From a bacterium (GTDB taxonomy: Bacteria; UBA4055), in the NCBI GenBank assembly GCA_029559475.1, contig JAKQBN010000030.1:62001-126000 (forward strand): a stretch of DNA of 64,000 nt, in the 5' to 3' direction. Below, in pieces: positions 17,517 through 41,931 of this stretch (position 1 is its first letter; every line of letters starts with the position of its first letter). The notes under the pieces were generated by a model. That model saw nothing but the letters and a program-made list of their open reading frames with translations, was not told the DNA's origin and did no database searches. The position numbers were made by a program, and so were the translations under genes.

Positions 17517-17544
17517 AGTCCGATCCTGTTTTTGTTTATTCATG

Positions 17545-20501: not shown

Positions 20502-21968
20502 TTATTTAATGCTTCTGACCATTCTGAAGCCTATATAAAAATATTTGTCATTGGGATTGTAAAGATTTCTGCAGCATACTCTTGCGCATTTTTCGTAATT
20601 GAACCAGCTTCCTCCTCTTATCACTCGAAGAAAACCTTTTACCGGACCTGTAGGATTGGATAAATTCTTTATATCATCCGGATAAACATCATACCAGTCC
20701 CAGCACCACTCGCTGACGTTACCTGTCATATCGTATAATCCAAGTTCATTAGCCTTCATTCTGCTTCCAACTGAACATGTTGATTCTTTTGCGGTTTTCG
20801 TATAGACAGCCACTTCTTGTATCCTGTCGCTTCCGCTGTATAAATATTTATGGGATTTCTTTCCTCCTCCGGACGCATATTCCCATTCTGCTTCGGTAGG
20901 AAGCCTGTAGCCGTTCGCTTTAAAATCGCAGACAATATCGCTGCCGGTACCTGTATAACATTTCTGCAATCCCTCCGTCTCGCTCATTTTGTTGCAGAAT
21001 TTTACTGCGTCGTACCAGCTTACGTTCTCTACGGGAAGACTGTCACCTGTAAATTCCGAAACGCTTTTTCCCATTATATAATTCCATTCGGCCTGAGTTG
21101 TCTCATATTTACTGATATAAAAACTGCTGACGGACACTTTATGAATTGGAAGTTCATCAGTGCAGCCCTGACTTCCACCCATTTCAAAAGAACCTCCTTC
21201 GACAAGAACGTATTCGCCTCCAATATCCGGTCCCGGTTTCAATTTCACGTTTCTTTTTACAGCTGTTCCCTGTTCTATTATGAACTCTTCACTGTAACTT
21301 TTATGGCCTTTCTTTTTTATTTTGAGCTTATAAACTCCGGCCGGCAGATTGGAAAAAGTCCTGTTACCGTAACATGAGTATTTATTGAACCCTTCCTCCC
21401 ACAACTCCGTGAAACAGCTGTCAGGCGAAGTCGTGATCTGAACTGACCCGACGGGATAATCAGGATACATCATTATCGTTTTATCTTCTTTATCAGACAG
21501 ACTGACGGTCTTTTCTAAGGTCTTTGTGCTGTCCATTTCCACTTTCAACCTGTATTCACCCGGCTGAAGTTTAATTCTTTCATATTCTTTTGTAAACTCT
21601 CCGTTGATAAATACTTTCACCTTCTTAAATGTGTTGATAGTAAGCGTCGCCCGAACATCTGCGAAAACATATTTCTTTCGTGTTTCAGGCGCTTTAACAA
21701 CCAAAGTTTCTTCAATTTCTGGAAAACCTTTGATCGAAAGCGATACTTTATGCCTGCCCGCAGGATATTCGAATTCTACAGGAGTTATTCCTATCTCTTC
21801 ATCAGCTATATAAACTTCCGCGCCTTCAGGTTCAGAAATGATAATGACTTTGGCTATCTGAACAGTAAATACCGGCTTTTTCATTTGATCCTGAGATGTA
21901 TTTAACGAATCCTGCGCGGACATTGTCAAAAACATTCCCGATATTAAAAACGGCAACAATAATCTCAT
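20502..21968 (-). CDS. Exported PEGA / SUMF1-domain protein (paralogue A)
   Basis: A 488-aa exported protein with signal peptide 1-18. Three PEGA-type beta modules follow: about 42-95 (SEPEGAEVYIADEEIG, YPAGRHKVSL), 105-160 (VKVFINGEF) and 175-240 (NLPAGVYKLKIKKKGHKSY). The C-terminal 250-487 is a formylglycine-generating-enzyme-like (SUMF1) fold: VEGGSFEMGGSQ, PVENVSWYDAVKFCNKMSE, GYRLPTEAEWEYA, MTGNVSEWCWDWY, RVIRGGSW, GFRMVR. The RGGSW stretch lacks the CxxxxC copper/active-site pair of true FGE, so protein modification by that chemistry is not expected. Unlike four of its relatives at 25-33 kb it lacks the extra N-terminal module. It stands alone upstream of polA and divergent from ruvX. 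Confidence 0.85.
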   Translation of the reverse strand: MRLLLPFLISGMFLTMSAQDSLNTSQDQMKKPVFTVQIAKVIIISEPEGAEVYIADEEIGITPVEFEYPAGRHKVSLSIKGFPEIEETLVVKAPETRKKYVFADVRATLTINTFKKVKVFINGEFTKEYERIKLQPGEYRLKVEMDSTKTLEKTVSLSDKEDKTIMMYPDYPVGSVQITTSPDSCFTELWEEGFNKYSCYGNRTFSNLPAGVYKLKIKKKGHKSYSEEFIIEQGTAVKRNVKLKPGPDIGGEYVLVEGGSFEMGGSQGCTDELPIHKVSVSSFYISKYETTQAEWNYIMGKSVSEFTGDSLPVENVSWYDAVKFCNKMSETEGLQKCYTGTGSDIVCDFKANGYRLPTEAEWEYASGGGKKSHKYLYSGSDRIQEVAVYTKTAKESTCSVGSRMKANELGLYDMTGNVSEWCWDWYDVYPDDIKNLSNPTGPVKGFLRVIRGGSWFNYEKCARVCCRNLYNPNDKYFYIGFRMVRSIK

Positions 21969-23548: not shown

Positions 23549-24548
23549 GATCTTCATAAGCGGAGTAGCCGGATTTTTGGGCAGCCATCTTGCGGATATA
23601 TTCATAGCTGAAGGCTACAAAGTTGCAGGCTGCGATAACCTTATCGGCGGATATCTGGATAATGTTCCGTCTGAAGTGGAATTTTACCAGTATGACCTGA
23701 ATTTCCATAATTCCGTTGTAAAGATCACGAAAGACTGCGATATAATTTTTCACTGCGCCGCTACTGCCTATGAAGGTTTGAGCGTATTCAGCCCTTATTT
23801 TGTAACTAAGAACATAGTTGAATCCTCCGTCTCTCTGATAACGGCGGCGATCGCGAACAAGGCTGAACGATTTGTTTTCTGTTCATCAATGGCAAGATAC
23901 GGAACTCAGGACAAAGTTCCTTTTACGGAAGATATGACGCCAAAGCCGCAGGACCCGTACGGGATTGGCAAGTTCAGTTCGGAGCTGTTCTTAAGAAACC
24001 TCTGCGAAACTCACGGTATGGATTACGTCATAGCAGTTCCTCATAATATTATCGGGCCTCGTCAGAAATATGACGATCCCTACAGGAATGTTGCCAGCAT
24101 TATGATCAACCTTATGCTTCAGGGCAGACAGCCGATCATTTACGGCGACGGCGAGCAGAAAAGATGTTTCAGCTTTATTCAGGACGACATTGATATACTC
24201 TACAGGCTGGCTTTTGAAAAAAGCGCGGTCGGCGAAGTGATCAATATCGGTCCTGACGATGAGTTCGTAACTATAAATCAGCTTGCCGGTTGTATAGCTG
24301 AGATTATTGATTTTCAGCTTGATCCTATATATGAAAGGTCAAGACCGCAGGAAGTGGTCCTGGCAAACTGCTCGGCTGAAAAAGCGAGAATGCTTTTCGG
24401 ATATACACCTAAAACAAGGCTGAAGGACGGGTTGAGATCAATGGTAGAATATATAAAAACCAGAGGACCTAAGCCTTTCAAATATCACATCGATCTTGAA
24501 ATAATAAACAGTAAAACGCCGGACACATGGAAAAACCGGAAATTCTAG
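23532..24548 (+). CDS. NAD-dependent sugar-nucleotide epimerase/dehydratase
   Basis: Extended short-chain dehydrogenase of 338 aa. Rossmann motif GVAGFLGSHLAD at residues 10-21, catalytic Ser in CSSMARYG and the YxxxK pair in DPYGIGK near 145, NIIGPRQKY and IIYGDGEQKRCFSFIQD in the substrate part. This is the UDP-glucose 4-epimerase / dTDP-glucose dehydratase branch. RCFSFIQDD (rather than RDYIHV) is a variant of the usual epimerase motif, so the exact sugar is unclear. It overlaps the glycosyltransferase gene upstream (17 bp) and the pseudouridine synthase gene downstream (22 bp). Confidence 0.88.
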   Translation: MIKKPKIFISGVAGFLGSHLADIFIAEGYKVAGCDNLIGGYLDNVPSEVEFYQYDLNFHNSVVKITKDCDIIFHCAATAYEGLSVFSPYFVTKNIVESSVSLITAAIANKAERFVFCSSMARYGTQDKVPFTEDMTPKPQDPYGIGKFSSELFLRNLCETHGMDYVIAVPHNIIGPRQKYDDPYRNVASIMINLMLQGRQPIIYGDGEQKRCFSFIQDDIDILYRLAFEKSAVGEVINIGPDDEFVTINQLAGCIAEIIDFQLDPIYERSRPQEVVLANCSAEKARMLFGYTPKTRLKDGLRSMVEYIKTRGPKPFKYHIDLEIINSKTPDTWKNRKF

Positions 24549-25201
24549 CTCAAACGGCTGATTATGCCGTTATTTTTAAACCGGCAGGCCTTCCCTGTCA
24601 GCTTAAATCAGCATTCTCAGGTTATACTCTTGAATCAGAATTAAAACTCAAGCTGGGTAAGAATAAAATATTCTTTCCTCACAGGCTCGATAAGATCACA
24701 TCGGGACTTCTGATAGTAGCATTCGATAAAGATACTGTCGAATTTTTTAATAATGAGATCAGAAATAAACGACTCGGAAAATATTATCTTGCGCTGACTG
24801 AATCGAAGATAAATGATCCTCATACTCTTATAGGTTTACAAAAAAGATATATTAAAGTACACGATGACAATAGCGAGATCGTCAGAAGCGGAGGGCTTCC
24901 GTCATTTCTAGAAATTCTGTCTGTTGAACCCGCACCGGGAAATAATGAATGTTTTCATGTGCTGATCAGGCTTCTGACAGGCAGGATGCACCAGATCCGC
25001 GTTATGCTTGCGGATATGGGGATACCGTTATGCGGTGACAGGCTTTACAATCCCGGATCAAAATATAAAGAATTTTATCTTGAATCAATAGTGCTGAAAT
25101 TCACTGATCCGGAAAATATTGAACAGCGTTTTTATTATAAAAACCCTAAGAGAATAATTGAAATAAGCGAAACTATAAAAGCTTTTTTAAACACTTTATG
25201 A
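24527..25201 (+). CDS. RluA-family RNA pseudouridine synthase
   Basis: Converts specific uridines in rRNA or tRNA to pseudouridine. The 224 aa comprise the catalytic domain without an S4 domain. Catalytic Asp55 is in HRLDKITSGLL; the FKPAGLPCQ motif lies near 17-25 and the C-terminal GRMHQIRVMLADMGIPLCGD motif near 150. The target site is not predictable. It is the last gene of the ruvX unit and ends 10 bp before the convergent SUMF1 gene; I see no terminator hairpin between them. Confidence 0.92.
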   Translation: MEKPEILAQTADYAVIFKPAGLPCQLKSAFSGYTLESELKLKLGKNKIFFPHRLDKITSGLLIVAFDKDTVEFFNNEIRNKRLGKYYLALTESKINDPHTLIGLQKRYIKVHDDNSEIVRSGGLPSFLEILSVEPAPGNNECFHVLIRLLTGRMHQIRVMLADMGIPLCGDRLYNPGSKYKEFYLESIVLKFTDPENIEQRFYYKNPKRIIEISETIKAFLNTL

Positions 25202-25211
25202 CGGGATTTTA

Positions 25212-26528
25212 TTATCTCCTTACCGATCTTGCTATCCTGAACCCGCCATCACTGTCGGCAGATTCAGGTCCGGAGTGTGTGCGGGATTTATATCCTAAGT
25301 CGCTGAAAACCGGATCACTTTTATAGCTGCTGCCTCTCAGTACCCGGGAATATACATTTGGATCGCTTCCGTCCGCTCCTGTAGGATCGGTCTGATATTC
25401 GCTTTTATAATAATAACACCAGTCCCAGCACCATTCATAAACATTGCCGGTCATATCGTAAATTCCGAGTACATTCGGTCTTTTTGTTCCTGCGGGATGA
25501 CTTCTTCCGTCTGAGTTTGAATAATGCCATGCGACTTCATCAATAATATCACTTCCGCTGTATTTATATCCTAAATAAATTGGTCCTCCGCCGGCAGCAT
25601 ATTCCCATTCAGCTTCGGTCGGCAGTCTGTATCCGTTTGCGGAAAAATCGCATTTTATATTCTCGCCACTGCCGCTGTAGCATTTTTTTAGACCTTTCTT
25701 TTCGCTTAGTTTATTGCAGAACTCTACAGCATCATACCATGTTATGCTGTCAACAGGGAAATTGAATTCAGACTGTTTGAAACTCCCCTCTCCGGTTACT
25801 GAATTATAGATCTCCTTTGTAACTTCGAACATGCCTATGTAGAAATCGCTCAGAGTCACTTTATGTAACGGTTTTTCTAATTCCTCATTATTGTTTCCCA
25901 TAATGAAAGTACTGCCTTTTACCAGAACTTCCGAACCGTAATCCCTTTCAAGGTCCACATTGAACAACGTACTGTCCGTATTGACTTCGATCTTTTTGTT
26001 CATTTTATAATAACCCGGCCCTGATACCGACAGTTCATGCGTACCTGTTCTTAACTTTATATTTCTTCCGTATCGTATAGGTTTCCCGTCAACCGATATC
26101 TCAGAATTTTCAGGCTTTCCTGTAAAATTCACGGACAGTTCTGTGATCTTCATTTCTTCTCCCGTGCCTCTGATCTCAATACCGTAAACAGTATTAGAAT
26201 TCAGACTGAAAGGAAATGCGTGTTTTTTTGTATCATAACCTTCTTTTTTGAAAATTATATCCCTGCTGTCCTGCTGCATATAAACAAAGTATATACCGTC
26301 CCTGTAATCGTGTTTTTCGTATCCCTGACCGTCGAACTGAAGATCTGAGATATCGCTATAGACCTTCAGGATCGCACACCACTGCCCGAATATATCTTTT
26401 TGACCGTATTTTTGTGCCGAAAGGTCACCGGTGATCTGCTCTATATTTTTTGCGATCTCGAACTGAGCCCCGAATGATACACCTGCCATTAATAATACAA
26501 TACTGACTGATAATAGTTTAAAGCTCAT
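25212..26528 (-). CDS. Exported SUMF1-domain protein (paralogue B)
   Basis: A 438-aa protein with signal peptide 1-21. Residues 22-140 form the N-terminal module shared with three relatives (QFEIAKNIEQITGDLSAQKY, GQWCAILKVYSDISDLQF, GIYFVYMQQDSRDI). One PEGA-like unit is at 150-200 (VDGKPIRYGRNIKLRTGTHEL), then a SUMF1 domain at about 206-437 (FIMGNNNEELEKPLHKVTL, GYRLPTEAEWEYAAGGG, MTGNVYEWCWDWC, RVLRGSSY). It has the fewest PEGA units of the set, and its C-terminal RVLRGSS stretch has no cysteine. The start at 26528 overlaps the stop of the upstream paralogue (ATGA); a longer in-frame start at 26615 would lie inside that gene and is rejected. Confidence 0.85.
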   Translation of the reverse strand: MSFKLLSVSIVLLMAGVSFGAQFEIAKNIEQITGDLSAQKYGQKDIFGQWCAILKVYSDISDLQFDGQGYEKHDYRDGIYFVYMQQDSRDIIFKKEGYDTKKHAFPFSLNSNTVYGIEIRGTGEEMKITELSVNFTGKPENSEISVDGKPIRYGRNIKLRTGTHELSVSGPGYYKMNKKIEVNTDSTLFNVDLERDYGSEVLVKGSTFIMGNNNEELEKPLHKVTLSDFYIGMFEVTKEIYNSVTGEGSFKQSEFNFPVDSITWYDAVEFCNKLSEKKGLKKCYSGSGENIKCDFSANGYRLPTEAEWEYAAGGGPIYLGYKYSGSDIIDEVAWHYSNSDGRSHPAGTKRPNVLGIYDMTGNVYEWCWDWCYYYKSEYQTDPTGADGSDPNVYSRVLRGSSYKSDPVFSDLGYKSRTHSGPESADSDGGFRIARSVRR

Positions 26529-28483
26529 TTTATGACGTCCGAAAAATTTCTTGCGACTCTGAAACCTTTTATCACGCTTCTGCTCTCGGGACTGCCCGAA
26601 TATCTGCCGGTGCATTTTAAGTATCCGTCAGTAACATTATCCATCCAGTGACCGCCCCTCAAAACTCTTGGCGTTATATCCTTTGAATCAGGTCCTTTCT
26701 GGTCTGCTGATTCTGCATCTGAATAGTAATCATATCTGTCCCAGCACCATTCTTCCATATTGCCGCTCATATCATAAATACCGAGCTCATTAGGTTTTTT
26801 ACCCGCAACCTTCTTTGTTGATTTATCATTATTCCCTGCATACTCTGCAACTTCATTAATGTCTTTGCTTCCCGAATATTCAAACCCTTCGCTTTTATTT
26901 CCGCCCCTCGCGGCGTATTCCCATTCGGCTTCGGTAGGAAGCCTGTAACCGTCTGCTTTGAAATTACATATGATATTGTCGCCTGAGCCGCTGTAACACT
27001 TTTCCAGCCCTTCTTTCTCACTCAGTTTATTGCAGAATTCTACAGCCTCATACCAGCTTAACTGATCAACAGGATTATTTTCACCTTTGAATTCGCTCGG
27101 ATTCTTCCCTGTCAGCTCCTGATATTGAGCCTGGGTAACTTCTGTTTTGCTTATATAATAATCATTTAATGTTACATCGTGGGGCGGGCCCTCGTCGCTC
27201 CACATATTGCTCCCCATTTGAAATTTACCTCCCTCGACGAAAACAAAATCCTTTCCTGCGTCATAACCTTCTTCAAGTTTAATTTTCTTATTTATTTTAG
27301 CATCTTTCGTGACTATAACATCTTCAGCAGCTGTTTTAAAACCCTTTTTGCTGACTTTCAGCCTGTATGTGCCGGCAGGTACATTTGAGAAGGATTTTGA
27401 CCCTGTGGACGTATATTTTTCTCCTCCTGCCTCAGAAAGTTCGATATTTGCGCCTTCAGGTATTACTGTTATTTGTACCGTTCCTGTAAAAATCTGAGGG
27501 AAAAGATCTATGGTCTTTTTTTCGTTCCTTTTTAGGCTTATTTTTTTTTCAACAGGCTGAACTTTACTCATTTCAATTTTTACAGAGTGTTCTTTTGGCG
27601 GCAATTTTATATTTTTATATTCTGTGATCTGTTGCCCGTTTAGATATACTTTCGCTTTTTCATGCGTGTTTATTGTCAAAGTTGCTCGTATATCGGCTAA
27701 TTGGTAAGTTTTTTTCGTCTCCGGCCTTTTGATAATTACTGTTTCCTCTATATCTTCGTAGCCTTCAGGAGCATCAATCCTGATCCTGTATGTTCCTTCG
27801 GGATGATATGCCGGCAATGGAGTTTCGCCGATCCTGATGCTGTCGATATAAACAACAGCGCCGGGGGGATTTGAGTTTATCTCGAACTTGGCATTTTGGA
27901 TTTTTTCAAGTTTATATTCGAACATTGTTTTATCGGTGCTGACTTCAATTATTTTCTTATAAGTTTCATATCCTTCGCTTATTACTTTCAGTTCATGTTT
28001 TCCGACAGTTGTTTTTATGCTTTTTACACTGCCTTTTTCACTTCCGTCAAGAAATATGTTCGAATTTTCAGGCTCACCGATAAGGTTTATGGTAATATCT
28101 TCGATCTTTTTTTCTTCCCCGACTCCGGAAACTTCCAGAATATAAACCTTGTTGGATGCAAGCTGACGGGGGAACTGGTGTTTGAGAGAAATAAAGTCTG
28201 TTTTTATGAACTCGAGCATGCGGCTGCCGGGCTGCATGTAAACATGATAAATTCCATTGCCCATGTATTCCGACTTATCTAATGTCATGCTCTTGAAAGC
28301 AAGATTTTCAATATCTGTCTTGACCTTTAAGATCGCCACATAGTCGCCGTTATGATCCTTATAGCCGTATCTTTGGGCCGTTATACTGCCTGTATCCTCG
28401 TAAACATCCTTCACGATCTTGAATTGTGCTGAGAAGGTCAATACTGTTATAAGAAATATTAGTATAAGCTTAACTTTTTTCAA
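26525..28483 (-). CDS. Exported PEGA / SUMF1-domain protein (paralogue C)
   Basis: At 652 aa, the largest of the set. Signal peptide 1-19; N-terminal module 20-140 (QFKIVKDVYEDTGSITAQRY, YVAILKVKTDIENLAF). Four PEGA-type units follow at about 143-190, 205-265, 275-330 and 347-405 (NPPGAVVYIDSIRIGETPL, KVYLNGQQITEYKNIKLPP, IPEGANIELSEAGGEKY). SUMF1 domain 410-650: FVEGGKFQMGSNMWSDEGPP, ISKTEVTQAQYQELTG, GYRLPTEAEWEYAARGG, MSGNMEEWCWDRY, RVLRGGHW. No FGE-type cysteine pair. It ends by overlapping paralogue B (ATGA). A 120-bp gap with an AACTTT-GA-AAAGTT palindrome precedes it, so it could have its own promoter. Confidence 0.87.
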   Translation of the reverse strand: MKKVKLILIFLITVLTFSAQFKIVKDVYEDTGSITAQRYGYKDHNGDYVAILKVKTDIENLAFKSMTLDKSEYMGNGIYHVYMQPGSRMLEFIKTDFISLKHQFPRQLASNKVYILEVSGVGEEKKIEDITINLIGEPENSNIFLDGSEKGSVKSIKTTVGKHELKVISEGYETYKKIIEVSTDKTMFEYKLEKIQNAKFEINSNPPGAVVYIDSIRIGETPLPAYHPEGTYRIRIDAPEGYEDIEETVIIKRPETKKTYQLADIRATLTINTHEKAKVYLNGQQITEYKNIKLPPKEHSVKIEMSKVQPVEKKISLKRNEKKTIDLFPQIFTGTVQITVIPEGANIELSEAGGEKYTSTGSKSFSNVPAGTYRLKVSKKGFKTAAEDVIVTKDAKINKKIKLEEGYDAGKDFVFVEGGKFQMGSNMWSDEGPPHDVTLNDYYISKTEVTQAQYQELTGKNPSEFKGENNPVDQLSWYEAVEFCNKLSEKEGLEKCYSGSGDNIICNFKADGYRLPTEAEWEYAARGGNKSEGFEYSGSKDINEVAEYAGNNDKSTKKVAGKKPNELGIYDMSGNMEEWCWDRYDYYSDAESADQKGPDSKDITPRVLRGGHWMDNVTDGYLKCTGRYSGSPESRSVIKGFRVARNFSDVIK

Positions 28484-28510
28484 TTTTTACTTCCATAAAC
28501 GATAAATTAT

Positions 28511-28524
28511 AACTTTGAAAAGTT
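28511..28524. promoter_or_regulatory. Palindrome in the gap before paralogue C
   Basis: AACTTT-GA-AAAGTT, a perfect 6+2+6 inverted repeat, lies about 30 bp upstream of the 26525-28483 start, in the largest gap (about 120 bp) within the paralogue array. It may be a regulator site or promoter element; there is no further evidence. Confidence 0.3.
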
Positions 28525-28602
28525 AATAAAAGAATTTAGATTTTGCAAATAAATAGATTAATATGTATTAAAGCATTGCCACCGGTACAGAATTGTTAAG
28601 TT

Positions 28603-29982
<1,380 letters not shown>

Positions 29983-30021
29983 AAACATCTGTCCATATAA
30001 ATTAGAACTTGCGAAACGGAA

Positions 30022-31845
30022 CTATGGATGACGAACTACACGAAAGCCGGTAGTAAAGATCTTTTTGTCAGGAGGATAATAGTTCTGGAGGGTGATCAGG
30101 CTGCCAGACTCGTCACCGGCTGAGCATCCGCCGCGAACAACCCTGATAGAGCCGTCTGCGTACCCGTCCCAGCACCATTCTTCAACATTTCCGCTCATGT
30201 CATGAATTCCAAGTTCGTTCGGTTTTTTCGTTTCTACGGGTTGAATGACGCCGTTTTCAGTATTGTTAAAACACCATCCGACATCGTTTATTGAATTGCT
30301 TCCTGAATATTTGTATCCTCCGCTCCTTTTCCCGCCTTTCGCCGCATATTCCCATTCTGCTTCGGTAGGAAGCCTGTAGCCGTTCGCGCTGAAATCGCAA
30401 ATAATGCCTGAGCCGGACCCGCTGTAACATTTCTGCCGCATTTCCGTTTCGCTCAGTTTGTTGCAGAACTCGACCGCTTCGTACCATGTAACTGATTCCA
30501 CAGGCAGATCATCCCCTTTCGATCTGCTCGGATCATTTCCCATTAAAGTTTTCCACTGGGCTTGTGTCACCTCCGTTTTTCCTATATAAAAATCGCCAGC
30601 CTTATAGCCCTGAACCAACACATAATCTGAGCCGGGTTCGAGCTTAATGCCCTTTTTCTCGAACGCATCTGCAGTCAGGTTAATTTCCTGAGTTACGTTC
30701 TTAAAGCCTTTTTTGCTTACCTTAAGATTATATACACCGACTGGTATATTTGAAAAAGTTTTTGAACCTTTATCAGAATATTTCTCCCGTCCGTCTTCAG
30801 TCAGTTCTATTTTAGCATCCGGCGGAATTACTTCTATCCGAATCGTTCCGGTTGAGATGACAGGAAAAAGATCAAGTGTTTTGTTTTCTTTCTTTTTGAG
30901 TATGAATATTTTTTCAAGAGGTTTTGATTTGTTCATTTCAACTCTGACCACGCACCTCTGCGGCGTTAATTTCAGATCTATAAGCTCGGTCAGCTGCACG
31001 CCGTTAAGATATACTTTAGCGTTTTCGTTCGTATTAATTGTCAGTGTGGCTCTAATATCGTTAAGCTGATATTTCTTTTTCGTTTCAGGCGTTGTTATTT
31101 CAATAGCCTCCTCGATATCTTCGTAATTTTCGAATGAAAGTCTTATTCTGTATGTTCCCGGAGGATAAAATGTTGAGACCGGCGTTCTTCCGATCTGAAC
31201 TCCGTCTATATACGCCTTTGCTCCGGCAGGTTCGGAATCAATCAGGAGAGAGGCTTCTTCGATCCTTTCCATTTTATATTTGAACAACGTATTTGCTGGT
31301 TTAACTTCTATTGTATCAACAACCGATCGGAAGCCGTCTTTTGAAATTTTTAATTCATGCCTGCCTACCGAAGCCGTCAGATTCGATATGCTGCCTTTAT
31401 CCTCGCCGTCAAGAAATATGACCGCATTCTCAGGCTCAACAAGAATATTTATGGTTATATCTTCCATTTGCTGTTGATCGGCTACGCCGTTAATCTCGAT
31501 CATATAAACCGTATTCGATTTCAGTTTGAAAGGAAATTCATGATTTTTTGGTATATAGCCGTCCTTTTTGAACTTGATATTCTTTGTTTCAGGCTGAAGA
31601 TATACGAGGTATATACCTTCCTGGTAATAATCGTGTTTTTCATATCCCATGCTTTCAAACTGCAGCTCTTTAACATTCGTGTGAACTTTCAAAATCGCGC
31701 ACCAGTTGCCGTTAACGTCTCTGTAGGCGTACTTCTGAGCTGCCGGATCACCTGAGAGCCCGGTAATATCTTTTACGATCTCGAACTGGGCGGAAAAAAC
31801 CAGTGATACTATTAAGAAAATGAATATGGTTCTTATTACTTTCAT
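30022..31845 (-). CDS. Exported PEGA / SUMF1-domain protein (paralogue E)
   Basis: A 607-aa protein with signal peptide 1-19, N-terminal module 20-140 (QFEIVKDITGLSGDPAAQKY, GNWCAILKVHTNVKELQF) and four PEGA-type units at about 143-400 (PENAVIFLDGEDKGSISNL; SEPAGAKAYIDGVQIGRTPV; KVYLNGVQLTELIDLKLTP; IPPDAKIELTEDGREKYSD). A SUMF1 domain runs from about 405 to 605 but is shortened at its start: it goes from YVLVQGYKAGDFYIGKTEVTQ straight into the fold and misses the usual GGxFxMG segment. GYRLPTEAEWEYAAKGG and MSGNVEEWCWDGY are intact. The RVVRGG stretch carries one Cys but no CxxxxC pair. It is 22 bp downstream of paralogue F. Confidence 0.86.
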   Translation of the reverse strand: MKVIRTIFIFLIVSLVFSAQFEIVKDITGLSGDPAAQKYAYRDVNGNWCAILKVHTNVKELQFESMGYEKHDYYQEGIYLVYLQPETKNIKFKKDGYIPKNHEFPFKLKSNTVYMIEINGVADQQQMEDITINILVEPENAVIFLDGEDKGSISNLTASVGRHELKISKDGFRSVVDTIEVKPANTLFKYKMERIEEASLLIDSEPAGAKAYIDGVQIGRTPVSTFYPPGTYRIRLSFENYEDIEEAIEITTPETKKKYQLNDIRATLTINTNENAKVYLNGVQLTELIDLKLTPQRCVVRVEMNKSKPLEKIFILKKKENKTLDLFPVISTGTIRIEVIPPDAKIELTEDGREKYSDKGSKTFSNIPVGVYNLKVSKKGFKNVTQEINLTADAFEKKGIKLEPGSDYVLVQGYKAGDFYIGKTEVTQAQWKTLMGNDPSRSKGDDLPVESVTWYEAVEFCNKLSETEMRQKCYSGSGSGIICDFSANGYRLPTEAEWEYAAKGGKRSGGYKYSGSNSINDVGWCFNNTENGVIQPVETKKPNELGIHDMSGNVEEWCWDGYADGSIRVVRGGCSAGDESGSLITLQNYYPPDKKIFTTGFRVVRHP

Positions 31846-31867
31846 ATTTTAAGTTCTGCCTTTTTTT

Positions 31868-33334
31868 TCATGGAAGCCGCACTACACGAAACCCGATGTG
31901 GGAGCTTTTATATCGCATAGTGCTGCTGTCGCGCGATGTAAACCGGCTTTGAATTGCGTCCACCAGCCATGAACCGCCCCGAATAACGCGCGTCGCCCCT
32001 TCTATGTCCCAGTCCCAGCACCATTCCCACACGTTTCCGCTCATATCGTATATTCCGATCTCGTTAGGTTTTTTAGTAGCTACAGGTTTCGATTTTATTC
32101 CTGAATTCAGGTTGAACCATCCGACTTCTTCTATCGAATCGCTTCCGGAAAACTTATATCCCATACTCCGGCTTCCGCCTTTCGCAGCGTATTCCCATTC
32201 AGCTCCGGTAGGCAGCCTGTAGCCGTTCGCTTTGAAGTCGCATTTTATACTTGCCCCTGAACCGCTGTAGCATTTCTGAAGGCCTTCCATTTCACTCAGT
32301 TTATTGCAGTATTTTACAGCATCACTCCAGCTTATAGTCTCGACCGGAAGATCCTCCCCTTTGAACTCGCTCGGATCATTTCCCATCACAGCTTTCCACT
32401 GGGCTTGAGTCACTTCGGTTTTGCCGATATAGAACTCTCCTGTTCTAAAACCCCGCACAAGAATATAGTCTCCTCCCGGCTCATTGGTCTTATCATTACT
32501 AACGCTCTTTAAATCTTGTATATCTGACTGTGAGTCTGAATTTGAATTTTTGAGGACATATGATCTTTTTGTTTCAGGCCCTTTTATTTCGATAGTCTCC
32601 TCGAAATCTTCATAGCTGCCGAGTGATAGTCTTACCCTGTATGTCCCTTCAGGGTAAAATGATGAGACCGGAGTTTTCCCGATCTGAACTCCGTCAATAT
32701 ATGCGATTGCTCCGCCCGGTTCTGAATCAATTACGATTACAGCTTCCGCTATTCTGTCAAGTTTATATTTGAACAATGTGTTCTTCGGATCGACATGTAT
32801 CGTTTCGGTTCGGGACTGATAACCATCCTTTGTTATTTTTAATTCGTGACGGCCTACGGATGTATTCAGACTTATTATTCCGCCCTTTTCATCTCCGTCG
32901 AGAGTGATGATAGAATTTTCAGGTTCAACGAGAATGCTGATGGTAATCTCTTCTATCTTTTGTAATTCTCCTGCGCCTTTGAGTTCGAGCATGTAAACAG
33001 TATTCGGTTTCAGTTTGAACGGGAAGTTATGGCTTTTTGTGATACTGCCTTCTTTTTTAAACTTGAGATTCTTAGTATCAGGCTGAAGATATACAAGATA
33101 AACTCCTTCACCTCTATAATCGTGCTTTTCATAGCCTATCCCTTCGAACTGAAGATCTTTTACATCAGTGTGAACCTTTAAAATTGCGCACCACTGGCCG
33201 TTGACATCCTTGTAGCCGTACCTTTGAGCCGTGAGGTCGCCGGGAAGTTCCGTAACATCCTTCACTATCTCAAACTGGGCAGAGAACGACAATGCTGCTA
33301 TAAAAAATATTAGTATAAACTTAATCTTTTTCAT
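31868..33334 (-). CDS. Exported PEGA / SUMF1-domain protein (paralogue F)
   Basis: A 488-aa protein with signal peptide 1-19 and the N-terminal module at 20-140 (QFEIVKDVTELPGDLTAQRY, GQWCAILKVHTDVKDLQF). Two PEGA units lie at about 143-250 (PENSIITLDGDEKGGIISL; SEPGGAIAYIDGVQIGKTPV), then a short Ser/Asn-rich linker and a SUMF1 domain at about 272-486 (YILVRGFRTGEFYIGKTEVTQ, GYRLPTGAEWEYAAKGG, MSGNVWEWCWDWD, RVIRGGSW). Like E it misses the GGxFxMG segment. The two central PEGA units of C and E are absent, as if removed by recombination. I start at the ATG at 33334 (MKKIKFIL) and not 6 codons earlier. It is the first of five tandem paralogues, 24 bp after the FlgT/NTF2-like gene. Confidence 0.86.
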   Translation of the reverse strand: MKKIKFILIFFIAALSFSAQFEIVKDVTELPGDLTAQRYGYKDVNGQWCAILKVHTDVKDLQFEGIGYEKHDYRGEGVYLVYLQPDTKNLKFKKEGSITKSHNFPFKLKPNTVYMLELKGAGELQKIEEITISILVEPENSIITLDGDEKGGIISLNTSVGRHELKITKDGYQSRTETIHVDPKNTLFKYKLDRIAEAVIVIDSEPGGAIAYIDGVQIGKTPVSSFYPEGTYRVRLSLGSYEDFEETIEIKGPETKRSYVLKNSNSDSQSDIQDLKSVSNDKTNEPGGDYILVRGFRTGEFYIGKTEVTQAQWKAVMGNDPSEFKGEDLPVETISWSDAVKYCNKLSEMEGLQKCYSGSGASIKCDFKANGYRLPTGAEWEYAAKGGSRSMGYKFSGSDSIEEVGWFNLNSGIKSKPVATKKPNEIGIYDMSGNVWEWCWDWDIEGATRVIRGGSWLVDAIQSRFTSRDSSTMRYKSSHIGFRVVRLP

Positions 33335-33358
33335 ATTTACACTTCTGCTCAAAAAAAT

Positions 33359-35578
33359 CTAAAAACTGAAATCTGTAATTCCTATTATACTTCCGTCCGG
33401 ATTTTTTTCCGGCTGCCAGGATCTGACATATATCTTCGGCTTTTTAGGATCGCCTAAATCCATCATCAGGAAGAGATAGCCTTCATCTGCGTAATTTGAG
33501 GAATAATAATTCTGCTTTATCTGGATGCCGTATATCCTTTCACCGTTTCCTGCTTTTTTAATATCCGTGCTGTCGAACTGAATGTTGATGAATTCGTTCG
33601 ATTTGAATGCCGATCTCAGATTTTCAATATACTCGCTCTTGCTCAGCTTTGTATATCTTACTTTATCCTTGATCTGGTTCTGCATCTCGCCTATGTTCTT
33701 GGTCGGGTCGGGGTTGAGCATCTTTCCGATTATAATGATCGCGTTCTCGGCAAAAATATTATTTATGTAATCAAGCTGTTTAAGGCAGTATGCGGTCTTG
33801 TAGAACTCCATGAACTGAATGATCTGCATTTTCTCGGCGGCTGTGGCGAATGCGTCGCTTTTTTTAAGAATGTCGCCTATTGAAGTGTTTGACAGGCTGA
33901 ACGAAAGATGGTCTATAAGAAGGTCTTTGTTGAATATGATGTTGACATCCTCCATCGTGGCTTTCGTATTGCCTTTGTGGGTGAATTTCATCGGAATGGA
34001 TCTGACCGTTATCTGATCGTTGACGATAGCGGTTTTTAAATCGAAAGTATCGGACATCATCCTGGCGTTGCCGTATTTTATTATGGAATTGAACGTCTTT
34101 AAGCCTTCGGGAGTGAAGAATTTATCAATCCCTTCGTATTTGCATGACTTTATCGCTTTTACGATCTCGGCGGTGATTGAATTGCAATTGTCGATCTGAT
34201 CCTGACTTAAGTCTGTTGCCTCGTAATTCTTCTTCTCGGCAGGTTCGATCTTAGGTAAAACACTGTCCTGTACATTAGAATTATTAACGGCAGACACATT
34301 ATTGATCCTGAAATTCTCGACTTTTACAACAGGTTCAGAAACGACCGGCTTTGCCTGTTTTGCGTTCAGAGGGACGATTATTCTCGAAGTTTCGAATCGC
34401 GCTCCTGCCACGCCTTCTATCACCCGATTGAGCGATTTATTAATGCAGCTTTGCTTTTCGTACCTGTATTCGACATCGAATCTAATCCTGTCAAGATTCT
34501 TTGCGTACTCTCCGTAGAATTCGCAGCTTCCCGTTCCGTTCCTTACCGGCTGTTCTATGCTTGAGTCGCTACCCATAAAATACCTGTAGTCAAGATCCTG
34601 AACAGGGCTGTTTCTGAACTTTGCCGTGAAATACACCGTTTTTGAATCTTTTTCTTCCCTGATGTCATTGATCTCGAAACTTAAAGATTTCATTATCGAA
34701 TTTATCTTATCGGGCAATGCGAGAGCAAGCATTTTACCGGAAAATTCTTCGGGAAGATCATTTATCTTTATGTTCTTGTAGTACGGATAGCTTCTTAAAA
34801 GAGACAGCCCCCAGTAATAATATCTGACTGCGCTTCCGACATTTAGATCCTTTTCGTGCTTTACGGCCATTCCGAGATACTCTCCGATCATTCTCACTCT
34901 TTGATCGAACATCTTCGGCAACTCGTCTTTTTTTATATATTTTAATACTGTCTCGCCCTCGGTCTTCCTTTTAAAATACTGGTCGAAATCTGTTCTGTAT
35001 GTGCATATATTCGATCTGGTGTAATCGAAAAGATCTTCGCTTTCATCAATCAGATCTGCAAAATTATCTTTTATATCAACAGCGATATTCTCGATAAGCT
35101 TATCAGTAGCTCCGTCTTCGGCTTTTTTCGCGCTTTTATCCGACATCTCCCCGAAATAATACTGTCCGGACAGCTTAATATTTTCAATGCTGTCAGCGCT
35201 TTTTTTCTTGAGCTCTTCGGATAGTTCTTTCAATTTTCTAAGAACTTCATCCTCATTGATGTCGAAAGTGACAACACACTTAATATAGCCTTCGTTCCTG
35301 TCGAGAACCGGATATTCTTCTTTTACATTTCTAACATCTGCCTCGATCTTTGCGACGATAATGTCTTTCTGAAGCTCATAATCTTTTATAACAGTTTCGC
35401 TTGAAATGAACATCGCGAAGTTCTCAAGTCCGTTCCTTACAGCTTCCTTTTTAAACTTTTCCTTTGCTCCCGAAATAGAAAGATCATCCCCGAACCTGCC
35501 TTCAGCCGTACCCTGAATATTTTTCGGCCAGACTGAAAATAATAAGCTAAGTATCGCTACAAGTACCGTTTTTTTCAT
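33359..35578 (-). CDS. Exported protein with FlgT/LPP20-like N-domain and NTF2-like C-terminal part
   Basis: A 739-aa protein with an N-terminal signal peptide (1-18). Residues about 22-115 (NIQGTAEGRFGDDLSISGAKE, EAVRNGLENFAMFISSET, GYIKCVVTFDINEDEV) resemble the FlgT-N/LPP20 fold, in which a conserved helix follows the AxxEAxRNA-type motif. The middle (130-440) is unassigned. Residues about 455-735 look like one or two NTF2-like domains, ending with YADEGYLFLMMDLGD and IYVRSWQPE, a signature I know from Bacteroidales proteins encoded near PEGA/SUMF1 genes. It lies between the LPP20 gene (26 bp upstream) and paralogue F (24 bp downstream), so it very likely belongs to the same system. Function unknown. 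Confidence 0.75.
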   Translation of the reverse strand: MKKTVLVAILSLLFSVWPKNIQGTAEGRFGDDLSISGAKEKFKKEAVRNGLENFAMFISSETVIKDYELQKDIIVAKIEADVRNVKEEYPVLDRNEGYIKCVVTFDINEDEVLRKLKELSEELKKKSADSIENIKLSGQYYFGEMSDKSAKKAEDGATDKLIENIAVDIKDNFADLIDESEDLFDYTRSNICTYRTDFDQYFKRKTEGETVLKYIKKDELPKMFDQRVRMIGEYLGMAVKHEKDLNVGSAVRYYYWGLSLLRSYPYYKNIKINDLPEEFSGKMLALALPDKINSIMKSLSFEINDIREEKDSKTVYFTAKFRNSPVQDLDYRYFMGSDSSIEQPVRNGTGSCEFYGEYAKNLDRIRFDVEYRYEKQSCINKSLNRVIEGVAGARFETSRIIVPLNAKQAKPVVSEPVVKVENFRINNVSAVNNSNVQDSVLPKIEPAEKKNYEATDLSQDQIDNCNSITAEIVKAIKSCKYEGIDKFFTPEGLKTFNSIIKYGNARMMSDTFDLKTAIVNDQITVRSIPMKFTHKGNTKATMEDVNIIFNKDLLIDHLSFSLSNTSIGDILKKSDAFATAAEKMQIIQFMEFYKTAYCLKQLDYINNIFAENAIIIIGKMLNPDPTKNIGEMQNQIKDKVRYTKLSKSEYIENLRSAFKSNEFINIQFDSTDIKKAGNGERIYGIQIKQNYYSSNYADEGYLFLMMDLGDPKKPKIYVRSWQPEKNPDGSIIGITDFSF

Positions 35579-35604
35579 TTGAGTCCTGCTTTATAAATTA
35601 AAAC

Positions 35605-36717
35605 TTACTTTAAAATCGCCATTACTCTGCATTCGCCTAAAAACTTCTGAGTTTTAGCAGCATCGGCTATCTTAGCAGCATCGGCATCCGACAGAACTAT
35701 ATCGGCCTTGTTTTCGCCTTTCACTCCGACCGCTTTGATTATTAAAGGATTACTGCCAATACGTGTATTCTCTTTAGCTTTGTTCATATCTTTTAAATAA
35801 CCGATCATTCCCTGCTGAGTCGCAAAGCTTTCCGACACCATTGAGCTTCCGTAAACTTCCGTTCCGGCCTGGCTGAATACTTTAGGCGCAAGGGCAGGTC
35901 TGACATCAACGCCTTTACAGTCTATTATAAGCCCGGTATAAGCAGCTGCTCCGGTTGAAGAGACTATATCTGAAAGTTTATATGTCGCTTCAGGCACGAT
36001 CGGATATTCTTCATCAAAATCCATGTTATCCATAAGAACCGACGCGAATCCCGGTATAGGCTGAAGATTGTCGCCGAGTTTTACTTCGCAAGTGATCTCC
36101 ACGCTGCCGTCGTCAAAGTATTTTTCGCTGCCTTTTACGGTATGGGCATTTTTTACTATCCCTTCAGCAAGCGCATCGATCTTGTCCATCTCGACAGCTC
36201 CGTCCTTCATCATTGATGCTGAGGCCAGATAAAGTCCTTTTGTCCTTTCGAGGATCTTTCTTTTTGCGTCAAGTTCTGCCGCCCTTAAAGCCATCGGTCT
36301 TGCTTTTCCTGCGCCGATCCCGGTTACCTGAACGACTTTTCCCGCCCAGTCCAGATCGCCGAGACTCATTTCCACGGTCATTTCAACAGTTCCGTCTTCT
36401 TTATATACGGGAGCTCCGACAAGCTCATAATATTTCGCTATCCCCTCAGTCTTTGTTGTTATCACATCTGAAGTGGTCATAGCTTCGCTGACCGTCGTCT
36501 CGCTTGTAACATACATTCCTTTCAGTTCTTCGATTATTCTCCTTACCGCATCCATTTCGGCGGCCCTTAATGCCCCGAACCTCCTCTGGGCAGCATTTTT
36601 GTGATCAGGATTCGGCATTCCTACGCCTGTAGCAGTAACTTTTCTTCCGATCATGTCAACCTGTGCAAATGCCGCCATTACTGTCAAAAGCAGCACGATG
36701 TTAAATAACTTTTTCAT
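35605..36717 (-). CDS. Exported LPP20-family protein with two LPP20 domains
   Basis: A 370-aa exported protein with signal peptide 1-18 and no lipobox Cys, so probably periplasmic and not a lipoprotein. Two tandem LPP20-type domains are visible at about 25-125 (VTATGVGMPNPDH, RRFGALRAAEMDAVRRIIEELKGMYV) and 128-220 (VQVTGIGAGKARPMALRAAELDAKRKILERTKGLYL). The C-terminal third contains TGLIIDCKGVDVRPALAPKVF, typical of related FlgT-associated envelope proteins. It is the first gene of the SUMF1 array and starts only 25 bp after the rpoD stop, so it probably shares a transcript with the sigma factor. Confidence 0.8.
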   Translation of the reverse strand: MKKLFNIVLLLTVMAAFAQVDMIGRKVTATGVGMPNPDHKNAAQRRFGALRAAEMDAVRRIIEELKGMYVTSETTVSEAMTTSDVITTKTEGIAKYYELVGAPVYKEDGTVEMTVEMSLGDLDWAGKVVQVTGIGAGKARPMALRAAELDAKRKILERTKGLYLASASMMKDGAVEMDKIDALAEGIVKNAHTVKGSEKYFDDGSVEITCEVKLGDNLQPIPGFASVLMDNMDFDEEYPIVPEATYKLSDIVSSTGAAAYTGLIIDCKGVDVRPALAPKVFSQAGTEVYGSSMVSESFATQQGMIGYLKDMNKAKENTRIGSNPLIIKAVGVKGENKADIVLSDADAAKIADAAKTQKFLGECRVMAILK

Positions 36718-36742: not shown

Positions 36743-37612
36743 TTATCCTAAATAAGCCCTGAGAGCTTTTGACCTAGACGTATGCCTAAGTCTTCTGATA
36801 GCCTTTTCCTTGATCTGGCGAACGCGCTCTCTCGTCAGCTCGAACTTTGCGCCGATCTCCTCAAGCGTAAGCGGATGGTCCTGATCTATTCCGAAATATA
36901 GCATTATTACTTCTTTTTCACGATTGGTCAAAGATTTTAGAGCAATATCTATTTCTTCCCTTAATGAATCGTCAAAAAGCTGTTTGTCCGGAGAAGGCTG
37001 TTTATCTTCTTTGAGAACATCCAGAAGCCTGTTATCCTCGCCCGGTGCGAATTCCGCATCTATTGAAAGGTGCTTACCGGATATCTTAAGAGTGTCTGTA
37101 ACTTCGAGCTCTGTAGTCTCAAGAGCTTCTGCGATCTCCTCGGGTGTCGGTTCCCTCTCGAATTTCTTCTCAAGGCTTGTCATTGCTTTTGTGATCTTGC
37201 TGAGAGCTCCGACTTTATTTAATGGAAGCCTTACCACCCTCGACTGCTCTGCTAAAGCCTGCAGTATCGCCTGTCTTATCCACCAGACGGCGTATGAAAT
37301 GAATTTAAATCCTTTAGTTTCATCGAACCTGTGCGCTGCTTTGATCAACCCCATATTACCTTCATTTATAAGGTCGATCAGGCTCATTCCCTGATTCTGA
37401 TACTGCTTGGCGACCGATACCACAAAACGAAGATTGGCCCTGACAAGTTTTTCCAGTAATTTATCCTTGTCCGGACCATCCTCATGCATTTTTCGCGAGA
37501 GTTCAACCTCTTCTTCGGCATTTAAAAGATCTTCTTCACCTATCTCCTGGAGATATTTGTCAAGAAGCTGATTTGACCTTACCGGCCCGCTGTTCCCGTT
37601 TGTTGCGCCCAA
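36743..37612 (-). CDS. rpoD: Primary (RpoD/SigA-type) RNA polymerase sigma factor
   Basis: A 289-aa sigma-70 factor without region 1.1, of the length and sequence type of the Bacteroidota housekeeping sigma. Region 1.2 is [20 protein letters not shown]; region 2 is [20 protein letters not shown] and [20 protein letters not shown]; region 3 follows [14 protein letters not shown]; region 4.2 is [20 protein letters not shown]. The start codon is TTG at 37612 with GAGGGGAGGG 4 nt upstream; 18 residues before KYLQEIG is the normal distance. It lies between htrA (about 40 bp) and the LPP20 gene (25 bp), which is an unusual neighbourhood. Confidence 0.93.
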
Positions 37613-41787: not shown

Positions 41788-41886
41788 GTCAGACTCCTTT
41801 AGCCTTAGTTTACCATTCGGAGTAAATAAGTGCAAGTTGTATGCCAAACAAAAAAGATTTTTGATTTGCTTTTATCGGGCAAAATC

Positions 41887-41892
41887 TATAAT
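41887..41892 (+). promoter_or_regulatory. Possible -10 element of the 41932 gene
   Basis: A perfect TATAAT 40 bp before the start codon. The best -35 at 15-16 bp spacing (TTTGCT/TTGCTT) is poor, so this is a weak promoter or needs an activator. Confidence 0.3.
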
Positions 41893-41931
41893 TTACAGGT
41901 ATCAAATAATCTAAAACTTGCGGAGTATGAA

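What the first reader, a model, noticed from the sequence alone, without database searches (positions are those of the whole stretch)
25212..36717. Operon of five PEGA/SUMF1 paralogues led by LPP20 and FlgT/NTF2-like genes: candidate uncharacterised envelope system
Seven same-strand genes with short gaps (about 20-40 bp, one ATGA overlap and one 120-bp gap) encode only exported proteins: an LPP20-type protein, a FlgT/NTF2-like protein, then five proteins that join an N-terminal beta module, PEGA units and a SUMF1 fold. A sixth member lies at 20502-21968. PEGA modules are thought to bind cell wall or surface structures; SUMF1 folds serve as scaffolds in GldJ/GldK of gliding/type IX secretion. 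A set of co-expressed, exported, diversified SUMF1 proteins looks like a multi-subunit envelope assembly. The assembly idea is inference; the gene content and order are seen directly.
Basis: partly seen in the sequence, partly recalled or inferred. Interest (0 to 1): 0.75.

Follow-up and report, generated by a model that had tools for sequence, protein, structure and literature searches.

The report
Envelope receptor array with hypermutable relatives
The seven genes are an accessory set of exported proteins: five carry a binding head on a repeat-domain stalk, two are conserved partner proteins, and in related bacteria the same kind of head is rewritten at random by a diversity-generating retroelement, so this looks like a receptor set diversified here by gene duplication rather than by that machine.

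Summary
Four of the five SUMF1 proteins, not five, carry the N-terminal beta module, and the overlapping gene starts at 26528. The neighbourhood is conserved. FlgT/NTF2-like and beta-PEGA genes sit together in at least 45 of 79 loci from Bacteroidota, Cloacimonadota and other phyla, and an LPP20-like lipoprotein often precedes them. The closest solved protein, by profile and by predicted fold, is TvpA, the Treponema denticola retroelement variable protein. In six related genomes a diversity-generating retroelement (DGR) cassette sits in or beside this same module. In two near-identical strains, 21 of 28 differences over 6.5 kb fall in the 116-bp variable region of the head, all at template adenines. 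The window's own genome has no reverse transcriptase, and its heads show no significant adenine bias. Its paralogues are nonetheless most divergent exactly at the variable-region equivalent (37% against 56% in the head core). Best reading: an accessory envelope ligand-binding display system, diversified here by paralogy. Ligand and side of the outer membrane are unknown.

The parts
35605..36717 (-). LPP20-type exported protein, 370 aa: two LPP20-like units plus a C-terminal domain (residues about 225-370) shared with a tandem pair of lipoproteins found across the family (G000:C18); no lipobox cysteine
   Evidence: PF02169 37.1 bits; C-terminal domain in 13 of 13 family genomes; remote PDB matches Tp0624 1e-5 and FlgP 1e-3
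33359..35578 (-). FlgT/NTF2-like exported protein, 739 aa: LPP20-like units, helical and beta middle domain, NTF2-like C-terminal part (probably two units). Anchor gene of the conserved module
   Evidence: model pLDDT 82.9; NTF2 fold, Z about 14 for residues 571-727; 297 relatives in genome contigs
31868..33352 (-). PEGA-SUMF1 paralogue B: beta module, 2 PEGA, linker, SUMF1 head (likely ATG start at 33334)
31868..31990 (-). variable-region equivalent of B (RVIRGGSW...GFRVVRLP)
30022..31845 (-). PEGA-SUMF1 paralogue C: beta module, 4 PEGA-like units, SUMF1 head; structure modelled
30022..30144 (-). variable-region equivalent of C (includes the lowest-confidence stretch of the head model, residues 575-587)
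28603..29988 (-). PEGA-SUMF1 paralogue D: no beta module, PEGA units, SUMF1 head
28603..28725 (-). variable-region equivalent of D
26525..28483 (-). PEGA-SUMF1 paralogue E: beta module, 4 PEGA-like units, SUMF1 head; stalk groups with that of the G005 PEGA-barrel protein
26525..26668 (-). variable-region equivalent of E
25212..26528 (-). PEGA-SUMF1 paralogue F: beta module, 1 PEGA, SUMF1 head; start codon overlaps the stop of E (ATGA)
25212..25346 (-). variable-region equivalent of F
20502..21968 (-). sixth paralogue A: PEGA units plus SUMF1 head, no beta module. Vertically conserved next to polA in congeners G001 and G002 (67-68%) and in G003 (54%); core gene, not part of the accessory set
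36743..37612 (-). flanking rpoD-like sigma factor gene, 25 bp upstream of LPP20; marks the insertion point, which is free of the set in congeners
24527..25201 (+). flanking RluA-type pseudouridine synthase gene; other border of the accessory set

Best explanation
The gene set encodes an accessory ligand-binding display system of the cell envelope. Each PEGA-SUMF1 protein is a receptor: a beta module and PEGA repeats form a stalk, and a C-type-lectin-fold head of the TvpA kind, catalytically dead, binds a ligand through its C-terminal ~40-residue face. The LPP20 and FlgT/NTF2-like proteins are the conserved envelope partners that organise or anchor the receptors; in many relatives a PEGA-beta-barrel protein appears to supply an outer-membrane anchor. 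In several relatives the head of this same module is hypermutated by a diversity-generating retroelement. Here no retroelement is present, and a repertoire is held instead as tandem paralogues. Shown: gene content, conservation, DGR linkage and activity in relatives, predicted fold, absence of a detectable reverse transcriptase in this MAG. Inferred: ligand binding, anchoring by LPP20/FlgT-NTF2, paralogy as substitute for hypermutation. Unknown: ligand, and whether the heads face outside or the periplasm.
For: (1) Conserved module: beta/PEGA genes next to FlgT/NTF2 in 34 of 79 loci and within four genes in 45; LPP20-like genes, mostly with a lipobox, directly upstream in about a dozen Bacteroidales loci; same locus beside rpoD in another genus, G005; also in the distant genome G057. 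(2) Head: best PDB profile match TvpA 2y3c, 2.8e-66, against FGE 2e-41 and PorK 3.6e-31; fold Z 24.6 against 16.9-17.2. (3) DGR link: L168, L169, L141, L178, L179 and L176 have DGR RT plus HRDC accessory gene in or beside the module; template-to-variable-region changes lie at template adenines only, over 99-130 bp; L168 vs L169: 21 of 28 differences in the 116-bp variable region, all at template A. (4) The syntenic G005 heads carry an adenine-biased signature against a proxy template, p=8.6e-6 and 0.0017, absent from their head cores. (5) Paralogues in the window are least alike in the variable-region equivalent, 37% against 56% in the head core. (6) No paralogue has both FGE copper cysteines.
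Against: The own genome has no RVT_1 match, no template-like fragment, and the six window heads show no significant adenine bias, so past DGR action at this locus is not shown; the region could be variable simply because it is a surface loop. Only 6 of about 75 relatives with the FlgT/NTF2 gene have a DGR at the module, so the module usually works without one. No lipobox or membrane anchor is seen in the window proteins, no PEGA-barrel protein of this kind was found in this genome, and the barrel calls elsewhere rest on weak Pfam scores and C-terminal sequence. Co-transcription and physical interaction are untested.
Confidence: 0.6

Rival explanations
1. Structural envelope or secretion scaffold: the SUMF1 proteins are GldK/GldJ-like subunits of a ring or gliding/type IX secretion complex.
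For: SUMF1 fold shared with PorK (Z 17.2); the genome encodes an SprA_N protein and the window a receiver-PglZ protein of PorX type, so a type IX system probably exists.
Against: GldK/GldJ scores far under cut-off; TvpA a much closer relative; no GldL/M/N-like gene in the set; the whole set is absent from two congeners, which a core secretion part should not be; no T9SS C-terminal domain hit among the NCBIfam results.
Confidence: 0.1
2. Static multi-subunit envelope structure (surface layer, stalk or adhesive filament) in which paralogues are non-interchangeable structural parts and head variation has no recognition role.
For: Tandem co-oriented genes and distinct stalk lengths; PEGA repeats; LPP20 relatives such as FlgP form ring-like disks (PDB matches; ring role from general knowledge).
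Against: In relatives the same head is actively hypermutated, which suits recognition better than structure; heads differ on near-identical stalks in G005.
Confidence: 0.2
3. Envelope-side immune sensors: the heads recognise phage or rival proteins and the LPP20/FlgT-NTF2 partners relay a conflict response.
For: TvpA-type heads occur in DGR-diversified putative conflict systems (PMC7159879; PMC10907252, title and abstract); another SUMF1 protein in this genome starts with a caspase-like sequence (L058 12439-13911; domain call is by eye).
Against: No effector gene is present in or beside the set; all proteins appear exported.
Confidence: 0.1

Closest known systems
TvpA (Treponema denticola variable protein 1, PDB 2y3c)
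   Same: SUMF1-type C-type-lectin head, closest by profile and fold; C-terminal variable face ending GFR
   Different: TvpA is diversified by a DGR and has no PEGA stalk in the solved chain; the window heads have no DGR and no adenine bias
Diversity-generating retroelements of Bacteroidota and Cloacimonadota (loci L168, L169, L141, L178, L179)
   Same: Same beta-PEGA-SUMF1 target architecture, with FlgT/NTF2 next door in L168, L169 and L141
   Different: RT, HRDC accessory gene and template repeat were not found in the window's genome
GldK/PorK and GldJ (type IX secretion)
   Same: Exported SUMF1-fold proteins
   Different: Far below family cut-offs; no lipobox; no PEGA stalk in the family models
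Formylglycine-generating enzyme / SUMF1
   Same: Pfam PF03781 fold
   Different: Copper-binding cysteine pair missing in all six; only D keeps one
LPP20 / FlgP / FlgT
   Same: LPP20-type alpha-beta units in both leading genes
   Different: No flagellin in the genome; fused to NTF2-like domains or to a family-specific C-terminal domain
beta-PEGA-Fib_succ_major proteins (L111, PF09603; similar C-termini in L101 and L147)
   Same: Same stalk in the same gene neighbourhood
   Different: A different head family replaces SUMF1

Membership tests
Diversity-generating retroelement locus | DGR reverse transcriptase in the genome | tested here: not met
   No RVT_1 match in G000 (92% complete) nor in congeners G001/G002; present in G003, G004, G007
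Diversity-generating retroelement locus | Template repeat homologous to the head C-terminus | tested here: not met
   All 18 SUMF1 matches in G000 are long open domains, with no 48-aa fragment of the kind seen in G003:C8 and G004:C40
Diversity-generating retroelement locus | Adenine-restricted variation in the variable region | tested here: inconclusive
   Against a proxy template from G003:C8, A-F give p 0.064 to 1; the syntenic G005 heads give 8.6e-6 and 0.0017
TvpA-type C-type-lectin variable-protein fold | Sequence and fold closest to DGR variable protein TvpA | tested here: met
   Profile 2.8e-66, Z 24.6, rmsd 1.9 over 199 residues
GldK/PorK (TIGR03525) | Equivalog score 350 bits | tested here: not met
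   Best 102.2 bits
Formylglycine-generating enzyme | Copper-binding cysteine pair (human C336/C341) | tested here: not met
   Neither or only one present in A-F
FlgT flagellar H-ring protein | FlgT Pfam domains and a flagellar context | tested here: not met
   No Pfam hit for the 739-aa protein; no flagellin in the genome
LPP20 (PF02169) | Score above Pfam gathering cut-off | tested here: met
   37.1 against 25.9 bits for 35605-36717
LPP20 (PF02169) | Lipoprotein signal | tested here: not met
   No lipobox cysteine in the N-terminus as read from the sequence; about a dozen of the Bacteroidales counterparts have one
PEGA (PF08308) | Score above gathering cut-off | tested here: met
   25 to 122 bits in all six paralogues, cut-off 20.8
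NTF2-like fold | Cone-shaped alpha-beta fold | tested here: met
   Z about 14 to many NTF2-like chains for residues 571-727

The most novel reading that the evidence does not exclude
An undescribed envelope receptor system (LPP20, FlgT/NTF2-like, PEGA stalk with interchangeable C-type-lectin heads) spans the FCB group and Delongbacteria-like lineages. It exists in two states: heads hypermutated by a DGR, and DGR-free arrays of diverged paralogues that preserve a repertoire in the genome, with the window being the second state.
Probability: 0.4. Interest if true: 0.8.

Novelty: new variant of a known kind. Interest (0 to 1): 0.62.

Why it matters
Most cellular DGR targets are known only as exported proteins with binding domains (PMC8144416). 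This module names conserved partner genes, a stalk family and exchangeable heads, and provides natural pairs with and without the retroelement. It makes testable what such heads are displayed on, what they bind, and whether paralogue arrays replace hypermutation. The FlgT/NTF2-PEGA part occurs in cultured Bacteroides and Odoribacter species, so it can be tested in laboratory strains.

Tried and rejected
GldK/GldJ scaffold (scores far under cut-off). Catalytic FGE (cysteine pair missing). Flagellar FlgT (no flagellin). Live DGR in this genome (no RT; no adenine bias). Recent foreign origin by composition: G+C of the set is 0.419 against 0.406 for the window, so uninformative. Promoter and terminator scans gave numbers near chance (33 vs 26, 10 vs 11), so no operon boundaries were inferred. 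The tree of head cores is too poorly resolved to date the duplications (10 of 16 inner branches open). A plasmid search with the NTF2 domain gave no match. Further DGRs in relatives (L175, L177, L180, L181, L186-L188) were checked; no PEGA stalk was detected in their SUMF1 targets, so they are not counted. L185 has an RT but no SUMF1 target was found in the stretch read. The N-terminal part of the FlgT/NTF2 model found no clear solved relative by fold; that is a limit of a whole-chain search, not proof of a new fold.

Full report
Observation. The seven ORFs are present at the stated coordinates on the minus strand, with gaps of 6-119 bp and one ATGA overlap at 26525-26528. Pfam confirms LPP20 in the first gene and PEGA plus FGE-sulfatase (SUMF1) in the last five and in the sixth member at 20502-21968; the 739-aa second gene has no Pfam hit. 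Four of the five (B, C, E, F) carry an N-terminal beta module; D and A do not. rpoD lies only 25 bp upstream of LPP20 and RluA borders the other end.

Distribution in close relatives. The window lies in a 2.28-Mb, 92%-complete MAG. A genome of another genus of the same family, G005, is record UBP11_UBA4055. G005 keeps the set at the same place beside rpoD: two PEGA-SUMF1 proteins, LPP20 (65%), FlgT/NTF2 (58%) and a PEGA protein with a C-terminal beta-barrel-like domain. G003 and G006 have divergent versions. In two congeners, G001 and G002, no such full-length FlgT/NTF2 protein was found; in G002 rpoD and RluA are separated by about 270 bp holding only a small ORF, while paralogue A is kept in both, beside polA where the contig reaches that far (G001). 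The set is therefore accessory and A is core.

Distribution in distant relatives. A scan of 84,980 species genomes with the NTF2-like domain found 297 relatives; the best 80 are in Cloacimonadota, Neomarinimicrobiota, Latescibacterota, Delongbacteria, Chlorobiota and many Bacteroidales including cultured Bacteroides and Odoribacter. Of 79 loci, 34 have a beta/PEGA gene directly adjacent, 45 within four genes, 40 on the same strand within two. These are lower bounds, since many contigs end nearby, and the sample is the best-scoring part of the relatives. An LPP20-like gene, usually with a lipobox, lies directly upstream in about a dozen Bacteroidales loci. The beta-PEGA stalk ends in one of three domains: a SUMF1 head, a Fib_succ_major head, or a probable outer-membrane barrel. 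The barrel assignment rests on weak Pfam scores and C-terminal sequence.

The head. A profile of the PEGA-SUMF1 proteins hits TvpA of Treponema denticola, a DGR variable protein, at 2.8e-66, ahead of FGE at 2e-41 and PorK at 3.6e-31. The AlphaFold model of paralogue C (pLDDT 82) matches TvpA at Z 24.6, CarF 23.6, PorK 17.2, FGE 16.9 and the phage protein Mtd about 11.9. Parts of the variable-region equivalent (residues 575-587) are the least confident stretch of the head. No paralogue has the FGE copper cysteine pair; only D keeps one cysteine.

DGR link. In L168 and L169 (Bacteroidota) a beta-PEGA-SUMF1 gene is followed by an HRDC accessory gene, a DGR reverse transcriptase, a template repeat and the FlgT/NTF2 gene (L169 starts inside the SUMF1 gene); in L141 a SUMF1 gene, the same cassette, a PEGA protein and FlgT/NTF2 follow each other. 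L178 (genome recorded as Candidatus Stygibacter frigidus) and L179 (Salinivirgaceae) have PEGA-SUMF1 targets followed by the same cassette; L176 has RT and template upstream of an LPP20-like lipoprotein and FlgT/NTF2. Template-to-variable-region changes lie only at template adenines over runs of 99-130 bp in L168, L169, L141 and L179; the template of L178 was not found, probably beyond the contig end. L168 and L169 are 99.57% identical over 6,464 bp: 21 of 28 differences fall in the 116-bp variable region, all at template adenines, and 7 elsewhere. This is direct evidence of recent DGR action on this head. About 18 of some 75 relatives searched have such an RT; six have it at this module.

The window's state. 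The own genome and both congeners lack RVT_1 matches; sister genera G003 and G004 have DGRs with SUMF1 targets. Measured against the G003 template as proxy, the G005 heads show adenine-biased change (20/33 A vs 15/87 other, p=8.6e-6; and p=0.0017) while their head cores do not; the six window heads do not (p 0.064 to 1). The template is from another genus, so this test is weak for diverged heads. Between window paralogues the last 40 residues average 37% identity against 56% for the head core and beta module and 46-54% for PEGA. In G005 two paralogues share a stalk that is mostly 84-99% identical in DNA but have heads only 52-77% identical, which suggests exchange of heads on a common stalk or fast change of the head.

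The partners. The FlgT/NTF2 model (pLDDT 83) has two N-terminal helix-strand units resembling LPP20, a middle domain and an NTF2-like C-terminal part; the profile hits LPP20 protein 4kzs at 7e-6. The LPP20 gene remotely matches Tp0624 and FlgP. No flagellin was found. An SprA_N protein exists in the genome, so type IX secretion is probable, but the set shows no membership in it.

Conclusion. The best explanation is a receptor display module whose heads are DGR-diversified in some relatives and held as paralogues here. Conservation and DGR linkage are shown; ligand binding, anchoring and repertoire function are inferred. The library search found no paper holding PEGA domain with LPP20 or with SUMF1; one DGR paper mentions PEGA, in a different context. 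Subscription papers and supplements were not searched.

Noticed in passing
9277-10839: Response-regulator receiver plus PglZ domain protein, the architecture of PorX of type IX secretion; the genome also has an SprA_N protein (G000:C60:16373-17599).
   Followed up: partly
13665-17543: Guanylate/adenylate cyclase, AAA ATPase and TPR protein of 1292 aa.
   Followed up: no
41830-43719: 629-aa protein without any Pfam match.
   Followed up: no
20502-21968: Paralogue A is conserved at the same locus in G001, G002 and G003 (next to polA in G001 and G003), so one PEGA-SUMF1 gene is core while the others are accessory.
   Followed up: yes
L057 6358-11951 (G000:C25) and L058 10148-13911 (G000:C79): Two further places in the same genome with a 280-aa FlgT-N-like protein near a SUMF1 protein; the C79 one starts with a caspase-like sequence (KYALVIGN).
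   Followed up: partly
L083 (G003:C8), L084 (G004:C40), L184 (G003:C346): DGR cassettes with SUMF1 targets in sister genera of this lineage.
   Followed up: yes
L059 7632-9438 (G000:C18): Tandem pair of proteins carrying the C-terminal domain of the window's LPP20 gene, found across the family; this domain remotely matches Treponema Tp0624.
   Followed up: partly
L134 (Odoribacter laneus): A cultured species with several consecutive PEGA genes beside FlgT/NTF2, a parallel paralogue array; some stretches read as N.
   Followed up: no
L111, L101, L147: The same beta-PEGA stalk carries a Fib_succ_major head (Pfam-confirmed in L111, similar C-termini in the other two) instead of SUMF1.
   Followed up: partly
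L071 8647-12698 (G000:C62): Tandem near-repeat of a gene pair (SUMF1 protein of 302 aa plus a 349-374-aa lipoprotein-like gene).
   Followed up: no
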